From assembly GCA_001632435.1 (NCBI GenBank), contig KV424096.1:44075-55729 (forward strand): a stretch of 11,655 nt of DNA, read 5' to 3'. The first letter of the stretch is position 1. Each line of letters starts with the position of its first letter. The DNA comes from Calocera cornea HHB12733 (Eukaryota; Basidiomycota; Dacrymycetes; Dacrymycetales; Dacrymycetaceae). The translations under genes were made by a program, and so were the position numbers. Below, piece by piece: positions 1 through 11,655 of the stretch. The notes beneath the pieces were generated by a model. The model was given only the letters and a program-made list of their open reading frames with translations, did not search any database and was not told where the DNA came from.

Positions 1-2034
1 AGGTCCCTGACCCAGTTGTCGTAGTGCGGCTGGGGAGCCGGCGCAGGCGTCGCTGCCCTCCCCAAGTCGAAATCGATGTCGATTTCGAGCTCGGGATCGA
101 ACAACACGGGGGAGTACGCCCTCGGCTGCTGCTGCTGTTGCTGCTGCTGCTGTTGCTGCTGTTGCGGCTGTTGCGGCTGCTGCTGTTGCTGCTGTTGCTG
201 CTGCTGTTGCTGTTGCTGCTGCTGCTGCTGGGGCTGGGGCGGGAGCGGGAGAGGGAGAGGGAGAGGGAGGGGGAGGGGGAGAGGGCGTTGCTGAGGCTGA
301 GGCTGAGGCTGGGGAGGGGGAGGCTGAGGCTGAGGCTGAGGCTGAGGAAGCTGGCGAGGTGCGACGCCGAGCTCGTCCTCGAGCTTCTTCTGCATCTCTG
401 GCCAGGGAAGATGCCCTGCCAGTCCCTCAGGAACCCCTCCGTAGGCACGATAGCCTTGACGAACCTCGGGGCGTGCAATGCCCGGGAGGACGGCTGAGGT
501 CGAGCCGCTCGTCGACGCGAGTGCGGGGCTGGGCGGCGCGCTGGTGCGGTACTGGGCGGCGCGCTTGAGCTCGTCGTAGCGCTGCCGCTTCCAGGCAGGG
601 GCGTACGGATCGGCCTTGTAGGCCGTCTCGAACTTGCTCACCGCCTTCTTGCGCCGCTTTGCGCTGAGCCGCTTGCTCGTGCGCTGCTGCGTGGCCGTCT
701 TTGCCTCGTGCGAGATGGTGTTGGCCTCGACGACTTGCTTGGGGAGCTGCCCGGCGAGCTTCTCGGCAGCGTGGGCGCGCTGCTTCTTCACCCAGAGCAG
801 GGTGAAGTTCTCGTCCTTCCACCCTGCAATCGCGCCTGGATCGTTGGCGACGTGCTCGCGGCGTACGGGGCGGAGGATGGGCACGCCGTGCCAGAGGAGC
901 GTGCGGTGCTTGCCGGACTCATCGACTTCGCCCTGCTCGAGGAGGATGCCAACAAAGTTGCGTACGGCGGGGAGGGTGCGGCCGTCGAAGGGGCGCCAGG
1001 TCGCGTGCATGTACAGCAAGCTGTACATGCCGATGAGCTCGCGCACCTTGGCTTGGGCGCACAGCCAGTAGATCCGCGCGTGCCAGTAGGGCATCGCGTG
1101 GAAGAGGTCGGTCTTCTCCTGGGAGAAGTTGCCGCCCCAGCGCTTGGTGAGGTCGCCGTAGAGCTGGCGGTGCGGGTGTGCGTCGGGGAGGCGGGCGACC
1201 AAGGCGCGGATGCGCTCCGAGTAGTCGTCGTGCGCGTCGCAGAGCGTCTTCGCCCACCAGGCGTTGATGAAGCCGGCCGTGCTCTGGCAGATGTCGTTGA
1301 GCAGGCGCGAGAGCCTGACGTGCTCGGCATTGGGCACTTCTCCGTCCCAGAGGTCGTCGTTCGGCTGGCAAAACCTGCCAGTGACGAACGGCGACCACCA
1401 GACGAGGCGAAGGGGCGCCCACCAGACCATGGCGTTGGTCGGATCGCTGGGCGGGCCGGGGCAGTATCCTCGATGAGGATACCGCTCGTCGTACGGCCGG
1501 GGATAGACGGTCGGGTCGAGGGGACCGCGCGCCCACAGGTTGCGCATGTTCTCCGATTTGACGAAGGGGACGTCGCCGTCGTCGAGGTCGCTCTGGCCGA
1601 GGTACCAGGCCTTGAAGCGCGCCTGGAAGTCGCTCCAGTGCTGCCGGAGCTCGAGGTCGGTCGAGTTGGCGATGAGGAGGGCGGGGTCTTCGATCTGCAG
1701 CGCGGCGTACTGCTCGACGCTGTATCGATCCGCTGGGAGCAGGCTTGCGCTGCGTCGGAGGAGGGTCGGCTCGTCGGTGAAGCGATGCACCGTGTCGCGT
1801 GCAAACCGCTCGTAGAGCGTCAGGTGCCGATGGCCGGTGAAGTTCGGCCTCGGCGTGTCTGTAAAGTAGTTAGCAAGCTGTTTTAGATAGTAATGTCATT
1901 GATAACTTACCAGGTTTCCATTTGTACTTATTCTTTACAATGGGCAGGCCGTACTGCGCTGCCCATTCCTCATCGTATCCCTCGGCATCTCTGGGAGCGT
2001 CCCGATACCCTGTCTCGAACGTAGCTGTAGGCAT
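1..2034 (-). CDS. Gene A: unrecognised large protein with poly-Gln, Pro-rich tail (3' end off the window)
   Basis: Coding exons are 1911-2034 and 1858 down to the left edge, joined over a 52-nt intron. The ATG is at 2032-2034 in the context AACGATGCC, and the protein begins MPTATFETGYRDAPRDAEGY. Splicing gives about 660 residues with no stop before the edge, so the C-terminus is missing. The middle (about residues 180-370) is rich in Trp, Tyr, His and Arg, including NAMVWWAPLRLVWWSPF and WWAKTLCDAHDDYSERIR, which suggests a folded domain. A basic, probably helical stretch follows (TSKRLSAKRRKKAV), then PQ and LP repeats and poly-Gln, then an acidic DPELEIDIDFDLG. I do not recognise the family and assign no function. 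The Ser/Thr/Ala-rich and Arg-rich readings in the other frames are shadows. Neither visible intron carries the 24-bp motif found in the genes to the right. The poly-Gln and basic segments would suit a nuclear protein, but that is only a guess. Confidence 0.75.
123..350 (-). repeat. Poly-Gln and Pro-Gln/Pro-Leu low-complexity coding repeat in gene A
   Basis: In the gene A frame, plus-strand positions 126-230 encode 18 Gln, Pro, 2 Gln, Pro, then 13 Gln, from mixed CAG and CAA codons. Just upstream in the protein (about 231-350) are alternating Pro-Gln and Pro-Leu codons. The CAG/CAA interruptions mean this is not a pure triplet microsatellite, which would slow expansion and suggests some maintenance of the Gln tract as protein. 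Confidence 0.9.
1859..1910 (-). other. Intron 1 of gene A (52 nt, no motif)
   Basis: In the sense direction it starts GTAAGTTATC and ends GCTAACTACTTTACAG, with a clear branch point GCTAAC. Removing it joins codon fragment G to AC (Asp42) and restores one open frame between the short first exon and the long second exon. Confidence 0.85.
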
Positions 2035-2409: not shown

Positions 2410-2422
2410 AGGCGGGAGGGGG

Positions 2423-2455
<33 letters not shown>

Positions 2456-2600
2456 GCGAGCGGGCGGGGACGGAGGCGGGGGCGGAGGCGGGGGCGGGGG
2501 CGGGGGCGGGGGGGGGGGGGGGGGGGGGGCGGGAGGGGGGGGGGGAGGCGGGGACGGGGGCGGGGGCGGGGGCGGCGGCGGAGGCGGGCAGGGCGGCGGC
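2410..2600 (+). repeat. Extreme G-rich low-complexity tract (possible G-quadruplex DNA)
   Basis: The plus strand consists almost wholly of GGC, GGA and GGGGGC units, with one uninterrupted run of 22 G at 2508-2529 and a second long G run at 2535-2545. Many runs of at least four G separated by single bases fit G-quadruplex formation. It lies roughly 300 bp or more upstream of the gene A start, on the non-template side relative to gene B. Its length in the assembly may be unreliable. Confidence 0.85.
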
Positions 2601-2778
2601 GGCGAGGACGACGACGGCGGCAGCGAGCACGCCGGTGGTGGACAAGACGAGGATGGGGAGACAGGGACCAGGGGACTTAGACGCGCGACGTCCCCTGGCC
2701 CGGAGGCAAATCAGCCACCGAAAGCTGCTGGTCGCTGGACGCGTCGCAGCGGATGCTGATTTCCAGCCCGGAAGCGGA

Positions 2779-2843: not shown

Positions 2844-2962
2844 GGATCTGCACTCACCGCGTGTCAGGGTCATATTTGCTGCCGTTAGCACAGGCCTCTT
2901 AGATGACCTCTGATAAGGCTGATGCAGTAAGCAGCAGATGATCTCCTCTTAGGGTTTCGCAC

Positions 2963-3248: not shown

Positions 3249-5020
3249 ATGCCTTCGCAGGCCAAGGTAGGCCCGGCAGACATCACTACGCAACTTAAGA
3301 GGCTCTCCGCCCCTCAGCGCCTTGCTCTGGGCAAGGCGATCGCTACGTTGCAGGACGCTCCTGAAGATTGGTGAGTTAGGCGTCGTCTGGACAAGAACGA
3401 GGAAGACGGTGCTTTACCGCACGGTCTTTCTAGCGCGCAGTCCACACCCCTTACGATGACATTTCACGTGCTGACGCGACCCCAGGAACCTCGACCCAGC
3501 TCTCCTTCCCACAGCCCAAAACGAAGCCATCTCAGAGCTGAAAGAAACGGTCGACAAGCTCAAGGACGACGTTAGCGCTCTACTTGACCGTTTGGACGAC
3601 TTGCGCGGCGAGCTGGATACTGCACATGAACAAATCCTCGAGCTAGAACAGAATCAGATTACACATTCTGCACCCAAATCGCGTGCCAAGCGCGTACGAA
3701 TGAATGACGCGGCTCCGCATCCTTCCAACAGTGATGCTGCAAATGATACCGCTCCGCGCCTGGCGAAGAAGCGCAAGACTGCCCTGGACGACACCGAGAA
3801 GGAGATTCGCGAAAGACTGCTTGTGAGTTATCTTGACGAGTTGATAGTAGCATGGTTGGACTCACACGGAAAGCAAGAGAACTCTTGCAAGCACCATCAG
3901 CAATCTCATCGGTTTCGATAAACATGAGAATGACGGGAAGATGCCGGGTAGAGGAAAGCACGAACCAGAAGCCGAAGAAGGCACGCCTGCGTTCATGCTC
4001 CCAGATTGGGCTAAGACCTGGCGTGAAGACGAAAACTACCAGATTGTCGACAAGACCATCAAACTTGTTCAGAGCATGCACAAGGTCTGTCAGCCCAACA
4101 CCCCTTACGATGACATTTCACCAAACTGACCTCTCACAGCCCAATTCTCCACTTGTTCCCGAAGGCAAAGAAGCATGGGTTTCGTACAACAACTTGAGCG
4201 ATATTCTGCATTCACACTGGGGTCAGATGAAGAAGCAATTCGATACAGAGAACGATTCGAAGAAGAAGCAACAACAACATAAGTGGGCTTTGGAAGGGAG
4301 ACTGACCGAAAGGCGCAATACGGTAGGCGGTCCCGATTGTCTGCGTTGTCGATCCATCTCACGTCCTCCTAAGCGATATGGCTGGTGTGTCAAGGGTGCA
4401 GAGCTGGTAGCCGCAGAGAAAGGCATCACCGACATTGACCAATTCGTTGCCGATACCCTTCACGAGTCATGGATGCCGGAGGAACGTGCGTGGGATGACG
4501 AGCCTGACTTGGAGAAGAATACAGCCTGGTGGGAGGAGATGTCTCAGTCAGACGACCTGAGTAGGGTGCAAAAGAAGGACCATACCTCAGCCTGGGAGTT
4601 AAAGCGCCCAGCTTGGATGAGCAGACCTGTATGCGACGGTGATTTCAACATTAGTCGAGTCCAAACTGACCGTGATCCCCGTAGTACTTCCAGTTTCTGT
4701 CCTCCCTGGTGCGCAGGAAAGAGCTTGCCGAGCTCGAGACACCCAGTTCTCGCAGAGGAAAGAAGTCGGCCCCAACTCCTCGCATCGACCTCGGGAACGT
4801 ATCCAATCTTCTGCCCAACCCCCATTTCCCGCCGTTCGAGTTCATGATTGACCCTGCTTGGAAGCAAAGCGAGATGAGCAAGCATCCGACATTCAAGTTC
4901 CTCAAGAAGCTTCCTGCTTCGATCACGGCCGAGGTCGCTGCGGAGCTTCAAGAGCTCAACGGCCCCTGGGTTCACCCCGATTGTTACGACGAGATCAATG
5001 AAGATGAATCATCTGAATAG
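3249..5020 (+). CDS. Gene B: unrecognised coiled-coil protein, five exons
   Basis: Exons are 3249-3370, 3486-3822, 3878-4084, 4140-4628 and 4685-5020. Splicing gives one open frame of 496 residues from ATG (context CACAATGCC) to TAG. A further in-frame 51-nt intron at 4323-4373 is possible and would give 479 residues. The first part (MPSQAKVGPADITTQLKRL) may be helical. Residues 55-98 form a heptad-like coiled coil (ELKETVDKLKDDVSALLDRL). Residues 104-112 (PKSRAKRVR) and 135-138 (KKRK) are basic clusters resembling nuclear localisation signals. The rest has Trp-rich charged segments such as WMPEERAWDDEPDLE and an acidic end (YDEINEDESSE). I do not recognise the family. Introns 1 and 3 carry the 24-bp motif. 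The gene ends 148 bp from the convergent transposase stop, so it may be an accessory gene of the same element or an unrelated host gene. Confidence 0.75.
3371..3485 (+). other. Gene B intron 1 (115 nt) carrying the 24-bp motif
   Basis: It starts GTGAGTTAGG and ends CTGACGCGACCCCAG. Splicing completes the Trp41 codon (TG|G) and continues NLDPALLPTAQNEAISELK. The motif at 3444-3467 ends 18 nt before the 3' splice site, directly before the branch-point-like CTGAC. Confidence 0.8.
3444..3467 (+). repeat. 24-bp motif, copy 1 (perfect; gene B intron 1)
   Basis: Perfect copy in the sense direction of gene B; core CCCCTTACGATGACATTTCA flanked by ACA and C. It is the only perfect copy not followed by a further C. 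Confidence 0.95.
3823..3877 (+). other. Gene B intron 2 (55 nt, no motif)
   Basis: It starts GTGAGTTATC and ends GGAAAGCAAG, with a possible branch site in GGACTCAC. It is needed because the unspliced frame stops at 3919-3921. Phase 0 joining gives REIRERLL-type helix sequence followed by RTLASTISNLIGFDKHEND. The CAAG acceptor is somewhat unusual; a neighbouring AG gives a different frame. Confidence 0.65.
4085..4139 (+). other. Gene B intron 3 (55 nt) carrying the 24-bp motif
   Basis: It starts GTCTGTCAGC and ends AACTGACCTCTCACAG. Splicing is in phase 0 (SMHK | PNSPLVPEG). The motif fills 4098-4121. It starts 13 nt into the intron and ends 18 nt before its end, with CTGAC just after it, the same 3' arrangement as in intron 1. 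Confidence 0.8.
4098..4121 (+). repeat. 24-bp motif, copy 2 (perfect; gene B intron 3)
   Basis: Perfect copy in the sense direction of gene B, followed by CAAACTGAC, which contains the branch point. Confidence 0.95.
4629..4684 (+). other. Gene B intron 4 (56 nt, no motif)
   Basis: It starts GTATGCGACG and ends AACTGACCGTGATCCCCGTAG, which is split here as branch AACTGAC and acceptor CCCCGTAG. Phase 0 joining gives RPAWMSRP | YFQFLSSLVRRKELAELE and leads to the natural stop at 5018-5020. Confidence 0.75.
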
Positions 5021-5168
5021 CGGCGAGTGAGCGATTTCGGGCCAGATCGGGAACGCAATACTGACTTTAAGACAATCAATGCAGATCCGCTCGCTTCACC
5101 AAAATCTCCTCCTGTCCTGTTGTTTAATCGTTGGCTCTGCAAGAGCGCAGGGACACACCGAAAGCTAG

Positions 5169-8100
5169 TTAGAAATCGGGTCCGGTCTGGAAAACTTTGT
5201 CAGTAAATAGTTGGTGAAATGTCATCGTAAGGGGTGTCAATGAGTGCGAGACATCGGCCACCATAAGAGAGGCCGCTTACTTTGTTCAGCCCGGTCGTCA
5301 GCCATATCCGATGATCATCAACTTCAACCACTGCGCGGGCTGCAATCCCGCAAAGTTCGCGCGCCTCCATGATACACGGCGGACCGCCTGTGTCGTCGCT
5401 GTCAAGGTAGATCCCATGCTCCCAGCATCCGACCTCCAGCTCCGGGCTGATTATAGTCGAAGAATACAGAGGGGGGTTAGGTGATTCGCCGGCGGAGGAG
5501 AGCGTTGCGGTGAAATGTCATCGTAAGGGGTGTGGACAGGCGATCAAGAAGCAATACGCAAAGGTGAAATGTAATCGTGAGGGGTGTGGAGGAGGAAAGA
5601 GCACGATCACGTACTATGGTGCGTAGAGCTTGGTCAGCTCCGTCGGTGAAGTTGGGGCCAACCATGCCACCTGGACAAAGATACGCGATATTCCCTCCGC
5701 ATGCTGAGAGTGAACGAAGACACGACGCAGTTCCCCCACCCACGACACGCCTGGTCGCACATGCGTGAGGACCAGGCCGTTGGGCTTGCAGCGCTCGTTC
5801 TGTTGCGCGGTCTCAATCTTGCGTCCTTCCCAGACTAACGCACGGTGCGCCATGATCTGGCGTGTAAGATACTCAATGCCGGCTGGAGGATCGGGTAACC
5901 TTTCGTGGCAGACTTCGAATTCTCTCGTAATGTCTGCAGCACATTTGAGCTTGCAATTGTGAAACCACCGCAGGAGGTTTCGGTAGGTCTTCTCGTCAAG
6001 CATGCCTGGCGAACCAGGGCCGTCCGGAGCGTACAAGTGACCATCTGCACGGACATAAGAGCGGCCTCACTTGTTAATATGGCAACAATGGCTTACACTC
6101 ATTGACTCCGTTCTGTGGGCCGTCCTGCATCTCTGCCAACGCGGCGACAGTCCCGCTTTTAGCATGATCCCGCGAAGCTCCAAACATAACGTTCCCAATA
6201 AGGCGGGCAAGAGGATCGTCATCCTGTGTGCGCAGTACAAGCGTCTGCTTGACAATGAGCTTGAAGACCAGACAAAGTAGCCAGAGACATACCATGCGGA
6301 TAAGTGTTACGTATCGCTTGAACTCTCGAGCGAATGTTACTTCCATTTCACCGCCTTGGTGATTGTTGGTGTTAAAGCTCTTAAGAAGCTTATTGAGCCG
6401 CTCGAAAAGAAACGCCCAAAACCCATGAACGGGTCCATAACGCCGCACTTGCTCTGGCATATGGGTCAGCCAGTGAAATGTCGGCGTGACAGAGGTCGGT
6501 CCATATATCTGGACCGACAATCAGCACAAGGGGTGAGCAGAAGAAGAGGAGAGTAAGGGTGAAATGTCATCGTAAGGGGTGTCAGAACATGGCGTAAGAG
6601 GAGCACCCGCGCACCTCCACGAATTCTCTGAAGAATTCCCTGTACAGGGAGTTCGCACGTTGTAGATTGGCTTCTGTGACTTGCCGGCGTGTATAGATCT
6701 TGATTGCTGCGGCCATACGAAGAAAGTTCTCAGCCGCTTGACTTGATACACGAGGTTGTTCTTCGTCATCATCAGGCAAATGATAGCGAGGTTCTGATTC
6801 GTCTTGACTGGCTCGGGCCGCACGTTGAAGTACAGGAGGGATCTACACACTTTGCATCAACATGGATTATTGTCCTCAAGTCATTGAGGGCTTACCACAG
6901 CAGGACCGTATAGAATGATGAGAGCCCTCCATTCATCAGCAGTTAAACTGCCCCCACGAGGCCGACCAACATCTTTCGGTAGCCTGGCAAACCAGCTCGG
7001 CATCTCAAACTGAAGAGTCTAGTCAGAGTTATTCTCTCTCCAGATACCCGCACTCACCAAGGCGAGAATAGCATGGATCTCATCGAGCTCGTATTGATGA
7101 GTCTTCGTCCCTTGCCGAAGAACCACGCGGTTCTCCTTTCCGCCCAACACCCAAACGTTGTACCACAGCCGCTTGGCCAAACCTGCGAATGATGTCATTA
7201 GTCCATATAGCGGCTATAGAACCGAATGGCTCACCAAGCAGAAGGGCGTGCATTGGATCAATGACGCCCATCTCCACTGGATTGAAATACGGCAATCTGC
7301 AGAATTCAGACCACCGCACGCCGTAGTATCTGGCATACTTCTCACGCTCCCTTTGCGCCTTGATCCGATGATAGCGAGCGGCTCGCTTCTTATGTCTTTC
7401 CCCACACCGAGCTTGAACCGCATGCTCAGGACAGCGAGCGATCTCATTGCGCCGAATCTTGCATTGTGTGCAGGGAAACCTGGAACTGGCTTGATCGCTG
7501 AAGCCAAGGAGCTTACATAGCGCAGGGTGATCGCAGACCGCAGCAACCATGGCGACTCGCACTCGACGGCCTTGAGGAAACTGCGGGGTTTTCACCACGA
7601 CGCCCGCAAGGTATAGTTGTAATAAATCGTCCACGAACGGTCGAAGGAAGCGCTGCAGCTGCTCGCTGTCTGGTTCGGTGGGGCCAGGCAGCGCAGCGCA
7701 AAGATTGAGATTGTAAACGCGATATCTGAGAGAGCCATCAGGTGAAATGTCATCGTAAGGGGTGTCAATACGACAATTACCTCAACTCCGCTGGAAGATT
7801 GGCGATTTGGACGGACAGCGCACCTGTCGAATGATGCGGAGAGCTCTCAGCCGTGAAAGGTTGGAACCTGAGTAATGTTTATTTGGCCGTCTGAGTCTGC
7901 ATCAGCGACCAGCACATACCAGTCTAATGAAACGACAAGGCCTAACCGAAGCTCGTTCTGCTCCTCGGCTTCTTCTCGAGAGCCCGGGAAGAATGGTTTG
8001 TTGTCTGGCGACTGTAAGTTTTGCCAGACGCTACCGTCTTGAATGCAGGTATAAAGGCCAGGCTTGCGCTTGCGATCGAGGTAGCGCATGCAAGCGTCTT

Positions 8101-9424
8101 CTATGCCAGGCTGCCCGAGAAACTCTCCGAGCTGTTCAGAAATCAAGTCGTACGGTGCTTGTTTGAGTGGAATGTGCTGCTTGCTCGCGGCTTTGGCGAT
8201 CGGTGCTTCGTACAGCTGTGCTCCGCATCCGTTCCTGCTGCACATTGGATCGGGAGAGGCTCCGTTATCCGTTTCGGGGGCCAGTTGCCAGCACTTGGGG
8301 CAAACTATTCGCCTCTTGAAGCGATCCTCGAAGCCCGCACGTTTATAGATGGTCTTCAGAGTTCGAGGAGCTGGTTGATCAAGATTCGTTCGGCGGTCGT
8401 TCAATACCGTCAACTGTTCCAGAATGGCAAGGAACACAGCAAGGACAATGTTGCAGGCGACATGTGATACGTGATGCACGCTGTGCAGATAGACCAGCAT
8501 CAAGGAGAAGGCGCGCACTCCAGCATTCGAGTGCAGTTGATAGTATCGGGTTTCAGGCCGTTGATCTTTGTTTCGGCATGCCTCGTCAACCAGCCTGTCA
8601 GGAAGCGGGATCCTCAAGGAGTCGACCGAGATACCATCATCAGATTCGTCCTCTTCCATCCGGTAGTCATTCGTCCTTTCGACCTCGCCGTTGTCCTCTT
8701 CTCCACTACTTGACTGGTCAGACGTGCCGGAGACCTGACTCGTCTGCTGGATAGGCGGAATGCCAGTACTAGTACTAGTGTCCTCCCCTCGATAAGCGGT
8801 GTCCCAGTTATCGTCCAAACGGAAGGTGTAGTCGTCAGATTGCCCCTGCGGAAGACCATCACCCATAGGGTTGATTTGTTCATCGCCCTGTAAGATATCT
8901 TCCATGAGATCGCTGAAAACTGTCTGAAGACCGGCGACACGACTTGGGAGTCGGTACTGGCTCTGAGGGCCCGTCGAGTGCTGTTGGAGGTTATGAGCGC
9001 TCATGGGCTGAAATGCCATCGTGAGGGGTGTACACTCCGGAAGTACGGTCTCCAGAGGTAGAACACCGGGAGAAGGTGTCGGCAGCGAGGTTGGGGTATA
9101 GCTGGTGGGGATAGGAGGATCATCATCCCACAGCGCCATGTCGACATCGATTCCGCAAGGCTCCATACTGAGTAAATCTTCTCCTACGGTCTGGGAATTC
9201 GCTCCGACGTCGGAGAGGGCTTGCATGCTAGATCGGATCGTGGGGCCGAAGTTGTTCACGGCTGTCGATCTTGCATTCAAAGCTCCATTCCTCGCCCGCA
9301 TGACTTTGGGGTTGCGCAAATGGGAAGCGTACACTTTCCGATTCGCCCACTTTCGTCCCTCGTATCTACCCTCAGAGACACAGACAGGACACCGGCATAC
9401 GACCGTCTGGAACTTGGGAGGCAT
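5169..9424 (-). CDS. Gene C: CACTA (En/Spm-like, Tnp2-type) DDE transposase
   Basis: Transposase for cut-and-paste movement of a CACTA DNA transposon, expected to act in the nucleus. Exons in transcript order: 9424-7920, 7867-7781, 7725-7235, 7182-7058, 7009-6896, 6842-6615, 6508-6293, 6244-6097, 6044-5615, 5446-5281, 5186-5169. They join without a stop into 1,175 residues. Cysteines at 10, 12 and 15 and a zinc-ribbon-like C375-C378-C395-C400 precede the core. The core contains ELRLGLVVSLDWFQPF (D501), LPGPTEPDSEQLQRFLRP, GVIDPMHALLLG (D687, H690) and YGPVHGFWAFLFERLNKLLK (E886, in the DUF4218-like part). D501, D687 and E886 are the inferred catalytic triad. The order and spacing match Tnp2 (PF02992) plus DUF4218 proteins of basidiomycetes and plants. 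The C-terminus ends GLNKTGPDF. Introns of 55, 106, 168 and 94 nt carry the 24-bp motif. No disabling change was seen. Removing a possible in-frame 66-nt intron in exon 1 would give 1,153 residues. Confidence 0.88.
5187..5280 (-). other. Transposase intron 10 (94 nt) carrying the 24-bp motif
   Basis: It starts GTAAGCGGCC and ends TTTACTGACAAAGTTTTCCAG, with a near-ideal branch point. Phase 0 joining gives RIWLTTGLNK | TGPDF and the stop. The motif is at 5214-5237, 27 nt before the 3' splice site. Confidence 0.85.
5214..5237 (-). repeat. 24-bp motif, copy 3 (perfect; transposase intron 10)
   Basis: Perfect copy in the sense direction of the transposase. Confidence 0.95.
5510..5533 (-). repeat. 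24-bp motif, copy 4 (perfect; transposase intron 9)
   Basis: Perfect copy in the sense direction; the downstream one of two in the same intron. Confidence 0.95.
5564..5587 (-). repeat. 24-bp motif, copy 5 (two mismatches; transposase intron 9)
   Basis: In the sense direction the core reads CCCCTCACGATTACATTTCA, with two changes from the consensus. It is the upstream one of the pair in intron 9. Confidence 0.9.
6045..6292 (-). other. Transposase introns 7 and 8 (48 and 52 nt, no motif)
   Basis: Intron 7 is 6245-6292 (GTATGT...AAGCAG). It is a multiple of three without stops, so read-through is also possible. Intron 8 is 6045-6096 (GTAAGC...GTGCAG). It is required because the unspliced frame stops at 6074-6076. 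Joining gives GVNE-Y-GHLYAPDGPGSPGM. Confidence 0.7.
6509..6614 (-). other. Transposase intron 6 (106 nt) carrying the 24-bp motif
   Basis: It starts GTGCGCGGGT and ends GTGCTGATTGTCGGTCCAG. Phase 0 joining gives FFREFVE | IYGPTSVTPTFHWLTHMP. The motif is at 6559-6582, 50 nt before the 3' splice site, followed by a long pyrimidine tract and a CTGAT branch site. Confidence 0.8.
6559..6582 (-). repeat. 24-bp motif, copy 6 (perfect; transposase intron 6)
   Basis: Perfect copy in the sense direction of the transposase. Confidence 0.95.
6843..7234 (-). other. Transposase introns 3-5 (52, 48 and 53 nt, no motif)
   Basis: The three introns are 7183-7234 (GTGAGC...CGCAG), 7010-7057 (GTGAGT...TTCAG, branch CTCTGACTAG) and 6843-6895 (GTAAGC...GTGTAG). 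The small exons between them encode LAKRLWYNVWVLGGKENR and FEMPSWFARLPKDVGRPRGG, which fit the family. None contains the motif, so they serve as ordinary-intron controls within the same gene. Confidence 0.8.
7726..7780 (-). other. Transposase intron 2 (55 nt) carrying the 24-bp motif
   Basis: It starts GTAATTGTCG and ends CTGATGGCTCTCTCAG. Phase 2 joining gives IANLPAEL-R-YRVYNLNLC, matching the family pattern. The motif (7742-7765) starts 15 nt in and ends 16 nt before the 3' splice site, immediately followed by the likely branch point CTGAT. Confidence 0.85.
7742..7765 (-). repeat. 24-bp motif, copy 7 (perfect; transposase intron 2)
   Basis: Perfect copy in the sense direction; makes up 24 of the 55 nt of the intron. 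Confidence 0.95.
7868..7919 (-). other. Transposase intron 1 (52 nt, no motif)
   Basis: It starts GTATGTGCTG and ends AACATTACTCAG. Splicing turns SLDW into SLDWFQPFTAESSPHHSTG, which restores the conserved DWFxPF motif of Tnp2 transposases. Reading through instead reaches a stop at 7847-7849. Confidence 0.85.
9008..9031 (-). repeat. 24-bp motif, copy 8 (three mismatches; inside transposase exon 1 as read)
   Basis: Sense core CCCCTCACGATGGCATTTCA; the following C is G here. Read as coding it gives TPLTMAFQ. It may belong to an unrecognised intron at 8981-9046: donor GTACTTCCGG, branch-like TCATAAC, acceptor CCAACAG, 66 nt, in frame. In that intron the motif starts 15 nt from the donor, as in transposase intron 2. 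Confidence 0.85.
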
Positions 9425-10181
9425 TTGCGCATGGAGTCTGAAAGCCCGATTAGCTGGGTTATCAGGTGGAGAGGGCTGAAGGATGCATACTTTTTTTTTG
9501 GCGACCTGTACACCCCATCCCGCTCATCTTCTTTGCCATCTCGAACGTCTTTTTTGGATTCCTGTCGCTCTTTTCCTTTTCCGATTCGAACTAGCATGAT
9601 TCGAGGAGCAATATTGGGCCGCAGATGGGCGGGGAATCCGGATTTGCTGCTGCCGATGGTGCACCGCATGTAGATCGCCGTGGAATGATGTCGAGTCTCC
9701 ATTCAAACCCCACCAGAGTCATGAGGGGTCGAAGTAAGCACGAGACTGTGAGCTGAACGTTGTTGGTGCGTCGCTAGACGGTGCGCACGCAGCAGACGAT
9801 AGATAAGGAGTGTCGCCCTCAACATGTGCAGCACAAAGTTTAAGTCAGGGTCTGTTCAGGGTGTCAATTGATGTCATCAATTATTAATGTCGCCTTTTAA
9901 GCCACATTACGGTCTTGTACAAATCAAACGAGTGCATTAGTGAATGGACGGCCCCGCTGACCTAGCTACAAACGAGCGTGACAGAGTACAGGTTTCCGCA
10001 TACAGATGACGAGAGCATGTATTGAAGGCAGCAAAGGAGTGTGACGATGAACACTGTACCTAATTCCGCACAGACGTTGGCGTCTTTGGTTCAGGTTCAT
10101 AGCGGAAAGACCGAGAGATAATCGGAAACGGAAACGGACGAGTATAGCATGGGAACTTTGAGATATTGAGGCAGTTGTGCC
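9425..10181. other. Non-coding flank between transposase start and gene D stop
   Basis: No supported gene. Just upstream of the transposase ATG is AGCTAATCGGGCTTTCAG in the sense direction, which could end a 5'-UTR intron, and a run of 9 T on the plus strand at 9491-9499. The palindrome AATTGATG-T-CATCAATT is at 9866-9882. The stretch from about 9780 is AT-richer and would include the 3' end of gene D. No transposon terminal repeat was recognised. Confidence 0.5.
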
Positions 10182-10811
10182 CTACACACAGATCACTCTG
10201 CGCACGCCAAGGTGGTCGTGCTCTTGAGAGTAAGTCTGAGTGGGGGGACGGTTGGTAGGAAAGGTCGTCTTGTGCACATTGCCGCGCTGCAACCAGGCCT
10301 GGTCGCCAGCATGGCTCTGCGCCTGGAATTTGAAACCGTTCGCTTGTCCTTTCTTCCAGCGGCGCTGGAAATAGGACAAGTTGCCTTCCGGAACTGCGGT
10401 AGTGGTGTTGCGGGCTGAAACGAGTTTGTTGGCCGGTACTCCAGGCTGCGTGCTCGCAGGAGGGAAGTACGCCTGCTCAGGACTGGGGACGAAAGCAGAG
10501 ACGGGAGCCTGGAGCTCGTATGGCGGAGGAGCACCGCTGCCCTGCTCGGTCCAGCCATCGGAGACGCCAGTAGAGTAGTCCGGGGGGCCACGGGAGACGT
10601 CAACGATCGCACGGAGATGTGAAGAGTAATCGGCACTTGCTCTGCCGTGCATAGCGTTGTTGCGGCCAATCGCCTGCGCCACGGTCTCGAAGTCGTCCAA
10701 GGCATCGGGGTGCGCCTCACGTATCGCATAAGTAAGATATCGAGATCCCAGTCTGGATTGCCGGTAGAGGGAGCAGGAGGAAGAGGGGTCGTCGATGAGA
10801 CGAACGAGTCT
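10182..10811 (-). CDS. Gene D, 3' exon: unrecognised protein with two PPxY motifs
   Basis: The frame is open from just after a TGA inside the last motif copy (10847) to TAG at 10182-10184, 221 residues if read from 10847. The first usable splice acceptor (GGAAG) makes the exon start near 10811. The sequence looks coding: LVRLIDDPSSSCSLYRQSRL, then REAHPDALDDFETVAQAIGR. It then has PPDY and PPPY (about residues 88-91 and 107-110 of the open frame), PPxY motifs that in other proteins bind WW domains such as those of Rsp5/Nedd4 ligases. The end is rich in Gln, Thr and basic residues. The first in-frame ATG is internal, so an upstream exon is expected. I do not recognise the family. The alternative frame that runs through the array extends over this exon but is Arg/Ser/Thr-rich, like a shadow. 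Confidence 0.6.
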   Translation of the reverse strand, partial: RLVRLIDDPSSSCSLYRQSRLGSRYLTYAIREAHPDALDDFETVAQAIGRNNAMHGRASADYSSHLRAIVDVSRGPPDYSTGVSDGWTEQGSGAPPPYELQAPVSAFVPSPEQAYFPPASTQPGVPANKLVSARNTTTAVPEGNLSYFQRRWKKGQANGFKFQAQSHAGDQAWLQRGNVHKTTFPTNRPPTQTYSQEHDHLGVRRVICV

Positions 10812-10839
10812 CTTCCAGAGCGCGGTGCCGTATTGCGAA

Positions 10840-11405
10840 GTGAAATGTCATCGTAAGGGGTGTTGGACAGTGCAGTGCGCATCCCGCCGAGGCCAGCCGC
10901 AGTACTGTCGATGGTGCCACCCCGGAGGCGGGCAGCACCTGGTGAAATGTCATCGTAAGGGGTGTCGGACAGTGCAGCGCGCGTCCCGCCAAGGCCAGTC
11001 GCAGTACTGTCGATGGTGCCACCCCGGAGGCGGGCAGCACCTGGTGAAATGTCATCGTAAGGGGTGTCGGACAGTGCAGCGCGCGTCCCGCCAAGGCCAG
11101 TCGCAGTACTGTCGATGGTGCCACCCCGGAGGCGGGCAGCACCTGGTGAAATGTCATCGTAAGGGGTGTTGGACAGAGCAGCGCGCGTCCAACCGAGGTC
11201 AGTCGCACTGCCGGTGACGGTGCTGCTCCGGAGGCGGGCAGCACCTGGTGAAATGTCATCGTAAGGGGTGTCGGACAGAGCAGCGCGCGTCCAACCGAGG
11301 TCAGTCGCACTGCCGGTGACGGTGCTGCTCCGGAGACGAGTTGCACCTTGTGATATGTCATCCTGCGGAGTGTCGAACAGAGGACGGCGCATCCAACCGG
11401 TCAAG
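10840..11405 (-). repeat. 102-bp tandem array, each unit carrying the 24-bp motif
   Basis: Motif copies start at plus positions 10840, 10942, 11044, 11146, 11248 and 11350, an exact 102-bp period. The first five are perfect; the sixth (11350-11373) has five mismatches and lies in a diverged, partial unit. The remaining 78 bp of each unit fall into two subtypes: three left units with GGTGGCACCATCGACAGTAC-type sequence, two right ones with AGCAGCACCGTCACCGGC. 102 is 34 codons, and two sense frames are open throughout (one gives repeats of DTPYDDISPGAARLR). The third sense frame, used by the next exon of gene D, has TGA in every motif copy. The array may be an intron of gene D or a coding repeat. 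Confidence 0.9.
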
Positions 11406-11553
11406 AAGCGCTTCTGAGCCTTCTTCTCGTTATCGATGGTGGGGATGGGGATGGATGGGCCGTGTCCGTCCCTATCAGTGGGATGATGTCTGAAAGGGCC
11501 TTGGATAATGCCCTCACTAGTTCACCTTCTTCAGGGGGGAGCACCGCAGGATA
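11401..11553 (-). CDS. Possible upstream exon sequence of gene D (uncertain)
   Basis: One frame reads YPAVLPPEEGELVRALSKAL and continues SDIIPLIGTDTAHPSPSPPS before a stop at 11401-11403; it has an amphipathic helix look. A second frame over the left part reads IDNEKKAQKRFLTGWMRR and runs into the array. They are in different frames, and no convincing donor and acceptor join them to each other or to the exon at 10182-10811. The protein start was not found. The remaining bases to 11655 are CT-rich in the sense direction, which is common near fungal transcription starts. Confidence 0.3.
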   Translation of the reverse strand, partial: YPAVLPPEEGELVRALSKALSDIIPLIGTDTAHPSPSPPSITRRRLRSAS

Positions 11554-11655
11554 CTGTTAAGACCGTTCTATATTGCAAGAGACGTCTAGATACAGCACTA
11601 GGAAGGTGGCTGCAGGGAAGGAAGAAGATAGAGAACGAAGGGGACGGAGAATGAC

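What the first reader, a model, noticed from the sequence alone, without database searches (positions are those of the whole stretch)
3444..11373. A 24-bp repeat occurs 14 times, always in the sense direction of its gene and mostly inside introns
Eleven copies are identical over 24 bp and three are diverged (core CCCCTTACGATGACATTTCA). All point in the direction of transcription, in three genes on both strands. Seven lie in introns required or strongly supported by reading-frame restoration. An ordinary transposon fragment would insert in both orientations and into intergenic DNA, but none of the visible gene-free stretches holds a copy. Identity across 11 copies, when ordinary intron sequence is not conserved, suggests recent spread, gene conversion or selection. 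Candidates are an introner-like intron-generating repeat or a conserved splicing or RNA-binding element.
Basis: partly seen in the sequence, partly recalled or inferred. Interest (0 to 1): 0.88.

Follow-up and report, generated by a model that had tools for sequence, protein, structure and literature searches.

The report
Transposon family's own sense-oriented sequence tag
The 24-letter repeat is not a roaming intron but what looks like a private recognition tag of one DNA transposon in the jelly fungus Calocera cornea; the related transposon families examined in the same genome carry tags of their own at matching places, mostly facing the way their genes are read.

Summary
In detail: 11 exact and 3 diverged copies, all sense, in three genes; 7 in introns, 1 in a transposase exon, 6 in a 102-bp coding array. 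It is not genome-wide: 17 places match a 22-bp core with up to 3 mismatches, 13 here, 3 on contig C111 (probably the far end of the same element) and 1 at a related gene on C48. The window is most of a Tnp2 (CACTA-type) transposon of Calocera cornea with gene A, tnp2, gene 3 and, on C111, gene 4. Related elements carry different motifs dispersed the same way. All 8 site groups compared have partners in sister element C88, but the motif changed in concert (identity 93-96% within, 62% between). Orientation over eight sequences: tnp2 40/40 and gene 3 15/15 sense, gene A 15/18, gene 4 12/20; gene 4 has an antisense copy in the same intron in all six loci inspected. Best reading: co-evolving recognition sites of an element-encoded factor, as in VANC/VANDAL and TNPA systems, here probably acting on transcripts. 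The factor is not identified. An introner is not supported.

The parts
2852..2869 (+). Left end of the element: 3-bp ACT, then terminus CACCGCGTGTCAGGG
   Evidence: Same 15 bases at the C88 element; ACGCGGTG followed by ACT at C111:2919-2926
3249..5020 (+). Gene A (unknown protein, coiled-coil N-terminal part)
   Evidence: Public protein P0001, CALCODRAFT_532866; no Pfam family above cut-off
3444..3467 (+). Motif copy, exact, in gene A intron 3371-3485
4098..4121 (+). Motif copy, exact, in gene A intron 4085-4139
5169..9424 (-). tnp2 transposase gene
   Evidence: PF02992 E 1.2e-9; model, last exon by hand with C88
5214..5237 (-). Motif copy, exact, in last tnp2 intron 5187-5280
5510..5533 (-). 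Motif copy, exact, in tnp2 intron 5447-5614
5564..5587 (-). Motif copy, diverged, in the same intron 5447-5614
6559..6582 (-). Motif copy, exact, in tnp2 intron 6509-6614 before IYG, an intron that holds a motif in the other families looked at
7742..7765 (-). Motif copy, exact, in tnp2 intron 7726-7780
9008..9031 (-). Motif copy, diverged, in tnp2 exon (frame TPLTMAFQP)
10193..11521 (-). Gene 3 open frame (5' end not established; contig ends at 11655)
   Evidence: collinear with C88
10840..11380 (-). 102-bp tandem array with five exact copies (10840-10863, 10942-10965, 11044-11067, 11146-11169, 11248-11271) and one diverged copy (11350-11373)

Best explanation
The 24-mer is an element-specific recognition site spread through the transcribed body of a four-gene Tnp2 (CACTA-type) transposon. 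A trans-acting protein, most likely encoded by the element itself (gene A, gene 3 or gene 4), recognises it on the element's nascent or unspliced RNA and thereby marks these transcripts as its own, for processing or for keeping the genes from being silenced. Each family has its own factor, so factor and sites co-evolve: all copies in an element change together while positions stay. SHOWN here: near-confinement to the element, different motif per family, kept positions with switched sequence, sense bias, location in transcribed parts. INFERRED: that a factor binds, that the element encodes it, that RNA rather than DNA is read, and the purpose. The wider claim, a trans-read recognition site on either RNA or DNA, I hold at about 0.85.
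For: Confinement: 16 of 17 core matches lie in the window or on C111; control 0. Own motifs in C88, C19/C13, C7/C26 and C51 and motif-like sequence in the same intron in 12 of 12 further Tnp2 loci. Concerted change: 8 of 8 positions shared by window and C88, identity 0.93-0.96 within and 0.62 between elements; C7 against C26 10 of 10 shared, motif 0.905, flanks 0.74. Motif distance follows transposase distance, Mantel r 0.49, p 0.0014. Sense: tnp2 40/40, gene 3 15/15. Transcribed: 7 copies in 1,054 bp of window introns against 0 in 926 bp of upstream and terminal DNA (p 0.012); 1 copy in 5,906 bp of such DNA over six elements. Exonic copies are read in different frames in tnp2 and gene 3, so the nucleotides rather than a peptide are kept.
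Against: No factor, binding domain or transcript was seen; gene A, 3 and 4 have no Pfam match above cut-off and the gene A model is poor. 11 of 94 copies are antisense: 8 in gene 4, 3 in gene A (two of those, C13 and C19, just 5' of gene A). Window against C88 the motif is more alike than both flanks in only 5 of 8 pairs. A DNA reader could also leave same-orientation sites: VANC motifs are arrayed in one orientation (PMC5735166 passage). Elements share ancestry, so copies are not independent.
Confidence: 0.45

Rival explanations
1. DNA-level sites: an element-encoded DNA-binding protein (VANC- or TNPA-like) coats the element to remove silencing marks or to help transposition; introns are where coding sequence allows long sites.
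For: VANC21 sites lie in introns, intergenic and terminal regions, differ between families and co-evolve (PMC5735166 passages); CACTA subfamilies of soybean differ in subterminal motifs and the putative DNA-binding protein (PMC2613891 passages). Many copies in C7, C26 and C51 have an inverted half copy beside them, as a dimer site would.
Against: Sense bias and near absence from upstream and terminal DNA, where VANC and TNPA sites are found.
Confidence: 0.3
2. Antisense guide: the gene 4 intron, which holds an antisense copy, gives an RNA that pairs with the sense copies in all element transcripts and so controls or marks them.
For: Antisense copy in the same gene 4 intron in 6 of 6 loci inspected; these introns fold better than shuffles in C111, C13 and C26 (z -3.3, -3.9, -4.7); the public C48 protein P0006 splices that intron out. 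The antisense copy follows the family motif exactly in C26, C7 and C13.
Against: C48 z only -1.6; antisense copies of C51 have 2-4 and of C111 2 mismatches to the motif; hairpins are not alike between families; no small RNA data; a protein-binding site may also be inverted.
Confidence: 0.12
3. No function: short sequences copied around inside the element by local duplication, conversion or an introner-like process.
For: A 102-bp array and inverted half copies show that local duplication happens; some motif introns are present in some families only.
Against: Dispersed copies have unrelated flanks, yet orientation and positions are kept between families; C7/C26 motif more alike than both flanks in 9 of 10 pairs.
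Confidence: 0.08

Closest known systems
VANC/VANDAL anti-silencing system of Arabidopsis (Hosaka et al. 2017, PMC5735166, passages seen)
   Same: Family-specific short motif repeated inside the element, including introns; motif and element diverge together; copies share one orientation within arrays
   Different: Plant Mutator-like elements; 8-9-bp motifs in tandem arrays of non-coding, also intergenic and terminal DNA. Here: fungal Tnp2 elements, motifs of about 17-26 bp, mostly single dispersed copies, tied to the sense strand, also in exons, rare in upstream and terminal DNA
TNPA and subterminal repeats of CACTA/En-Spm elements (PMC2613891, passages seen)
   Same: Tnp2 transposase family; subfamily-specific repeated motif thought to be read by an element-encoded DNA-binding protein. 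The En/Spm motif CCGACACTCTTA, recalled and from no call, resembles CCGACACCCCTTA in the array
   Different: Known motifs are subterminal; here the body of the genes carries them and the tested gene A-side ends do not
Introners (Gozashti et al. 2022, PMC9860276, passages seen)
   Same: Similar sequence in several introns of one genome
   Different: Introner similarity extends to near both splice sites; here only a short core is shared, it is confined to a transposon, and it also sits in exons

Membership tests
CACTA/EnSpm (Tnp2) transposon | Tnp2-type transposase | tested here: met
   PF02992, E 1.2e-9, above cut-off
CACTA/EnSpm (Tnp2) transposon | Inverted ends beginning CACTA | tested here: inconclusive
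   Window and C51 CACCGCG, C19/C13 CACTGCG; window-C111 ends agree over 8 bp only
CACTA/EnSpm (Tnp2) transposon | 2-3-bp target duplication | tested here: met
   AAT on both sides of C51; ACT at the window and C111 ends, which lie on two contigs
VANC-target system | Family-specific motif repeated in the element | tested here: met
VANC-target system | Sites in intergenic and terminal non-coding regions | tested here: not met
   1 copy in 5,906 bp of such DNA over six elements; gene 4-side ends not tested
VANC-target system | Element-encoded VANC protein binds the motif and removes methylation | not testable with these tools
   No Pfam match above cut-off for genes A, 3, 4
TNPA subterminal repeat system | Motif clustered next to the termini | tested here: not met
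   Gene A-side ends of six elements: none in five, one copy about 400 bp inside in C13
Introner | Introns alike to near both splice sites, spread through many host genes | tested here: not met
   Only the core is shared; 17 places genome-wide, 16 of them in window or C111

The most novel reading that the evidence does not exclude
The element carries an RNA-level self-recognition code: sense tags along its transcripts and one antisense copy, held in a hairpin in a gene 4 intron, that acts as an intron-derived guide RNA, so that guide and tags change together when a new family arises.
Probability: 0.12. Interest if true: 0.92.

Novelty: new variant of a known kind. Interest (0 to 1): 0.72.

Why it matters
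If right, a fungal Tnp2 lineage has evolved body-wide self-recognition tags like those of plant VANDAL elements, but tied to the transcribed strand. One 32-Mb genome holds 11 loci with about seven clearly different motif types, a ready series for testing how a selfish element and its recognition sites co-evolve and whether transposons tag their own RNA.

Tried and rejected
Introner: set aside after the genome search. Host-wide splicing element: an 18-mer at up to 3 mismatches gives 28 hits, 16 of them in the window, C111 or the C48 gene 4 relative; the remaining 12 equal the reversed control of 12. Viral origin: no exact hit in viral contigs. Selection on a peptide: exonic copies are read in different frames. 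A common RNA fold: copies of the window fold no better than shuffles (mean z 0.14, n 13) and C88 little (-0.63, n 11), while C13, C51, C111, C7 and C26 average -1.5 to -3.1 against controls of -0.1 to -0.6, so no shared fold. Gene A structure: mean pLDDT 44.8; no fold search was run. Literature: searches; their listings show no title on such a motif in fungal Tnp2 elements, but listings were capped. Only passages of PMC5735166, PMC10398659, PMC12730594, PMC9860276 and PMC2613891 were read. Gene models by script give doubtful introns in poorly conserved N-terminal parts and around some C7, C13 and C51 introns; window counts use a hand-checked list.

Full report
What the window is. It is the end of contig C183 (55,729 bp) of a 32.1-Mb assembly. 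The public protein P0001, CALCODRAFT_532866 of Calocera cornea HHB12733 (Dacrymycetes), listed with a 55,729-bp contig, matches gene A, which names the organism. The minus-strand gene 9424-5169 is a Tnp2 transposase (PF02992, E 1.2e-9). The left end, ACT|CACCGCGTGTCAGGG, starts at 2855; C88 has the same 15 bases. C111 begins with a gene 4 and then reaches ACGCGGTG|ACT at 2926; this 8-mer, in either direction, occurs 3 times in 74 kb of other sequence. The gene order fits C51, whose element has AAT on both sides. That C183 and C111 are two ends of one insertion is an inference.

The observation. Fourteen copies, all sense: 7 in introns, 1 in a tnp2 exon, 6 in the gene 3 array. The public gene A proteins of the window (P0001) and of C88 (P0002) both lack the two motif-bearing introns (places by comparison with the DNA).

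Genome-wide. A 22-mer with up to 3 mismatches has 17 places: 13 in the window, 3 on C111, 1 on C48; reversed control 0. An 18-mer gives 28, control 12. C48 holds a gene 4 relative, 59-77% identical in pieces, with three decayed copies of 5-6 mismatches; none of the 24 listed Tnp2 matches lies on C48 or C111 (lower bound).

Sister elements. Window, C88, C19, C13, C7, C26 and C51 were scanned at length. Each shows a dispersed motif; C19 and C13 share one and those of C7 and C26 differ by about one base, so five types are clearly distinct. Four partial loci (C91, C249, C74, C180) had no 12-mer repeated four times or more. On a closer look C249, C74 and C19b show a motif twice, C30 and C91 three times, and C180 none repeated, being placed only by likeness to C51. 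The intron before IYG..VTPTFHW holds motif-like sequence in 12 of 12 loci (C30 and C232 show the same sequence; limits were set by eye). Genome searches: C88 motif 13 hits, 11 on C88 and 2 elsewhere with 3 mismatches, control 0; C13/C19 motif 26 of 26 on those contigs; C26-type motif 41 hits on 11 contigs, control 2. Of those 11 contigs only C26, C7, C249 and C13 have a listed Tnp2 match, so strict confinement is not shown for that family.

Concerted change. Mean pairwise identity of copies: window 0.957 (13 copies) or 0.927 (all 14), C88 0.942 (11), between the two 0.62. Consensus motifs differ at 9 of 24 positions, 6 of them near-fixed by my cut-off. All 8 site groups compared are shared; homologous motifs are 0.61 alike and flanks 0.54, and the motif beats both flanks in 5 of 8. 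C7 and C26 share 10 of 10 sites: 0.905 against 0.74, motif ahead in 9 of 10. Over 11 loci motif distance follows transposase distance, r 0.49, p 0.0014, on a 64-residue piece and motifs delimited by eye; distant motifs are no more alike than shuffled ones.

Orientation and place. With up to 24% mismatches and hand-set gene spans, 94 copies in 8 sequences: 82 sense, 11 antisense, 1 outside. tnp2 40/40, gene 3 15/15, gene A 15/18, gene 4 12/20. The gene 4 antisense copies are the intron copy of C111, C13, C26 and C7 and four in C51, three of them in that intron. Gene A antisense copies are one in a C51 intron and one each just 5' of gene A in C13 and C19. Gene 4 has sense copies 5' and 3' of its coding part in C111, C48, C26, C7 and C13; in C51 no 5' copy was found. 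Window introns, 15 of them and 1,054 bp, hold 7 copies; 926 bp of upstream and terminal DNA hold none (p 0.012); such DNA of six elements, 5,906 bp, holds one, in C13.

Intron history. The intron ELR|YRVYNL holds the motif in window and C88 and is absent in C19, C7 and C26 (C13 not resolved; C51 seems to have one without it). PK|xPxGRxVRV is present with the motif in C7, C26 and C51 and absent in window, C88 and C19. SLDW|F is present in six of seven and never holds it (models). In C19 and C13 the second gene A copy looks exonic at the matching place. Sites are thus gained and lost, and kept whether spliced or not.

RNA structure. Gene 4 antisense introns: z -3.3 C111, -1.6 C48, -3.9 C13 (cut piece), -4.7 C26; two window sense introns -0.29 and 0.06. 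Around all copies results differ by family.

Mechanism. A nucleotide string read in trans and private to each family is the simplest account. The sense and transcribed bias favours an RNA or co-transcriptional reader, which I put at 0.45 for a protein and 0.12 for an antisense guide; a DNA reader stays at 0.3.

Novelty. Family-specific motifs in introns of an element are known from VANC/VANDAL and subfamily-specific motifs from CACTA ends. Dispersed, sense-bound, position-conserved motifs in a fungal Tnp2 element I did not find in the searches named in Tried and rejected.

Noticed in passing
C48 (L014) about 7580-9410, minus strand: Gene 4 relative (public protein CALCODRAFT_508711) on a contig without a listed Tnp2 match; its three motif copies have decayed while the frame is largely kept: a possible orphaned or host-kept gene.
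   Followed up: partly
C7, C26, C51 copies (L047, L034, L035, L046): Many motif copies have an inverted half copy beside them and fold as hairpins, unlike the window's copies.
   Followed up: partly
window 10840-11655 and C88:127846-128044: Both contigs end in or just beyond the gene 3 array, probably an assembly break at the repeat.
   Followed up: no
C149:75309-77773 and C142: C149 repeats the spacing of motif hits of the gene 4 side of C26; C142 has CAAGATTACATACCAAC three times, perhaps a further family.
   Followed up: no
window 3-1895, minus: 631-residue open frame with a long glutamine- and proline-rich stretch; no Pfam match above cut-off.
   Followed up: no
window 2414-2621: Very G-rich tract with a long run of G outside the element.
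   Followed up: no
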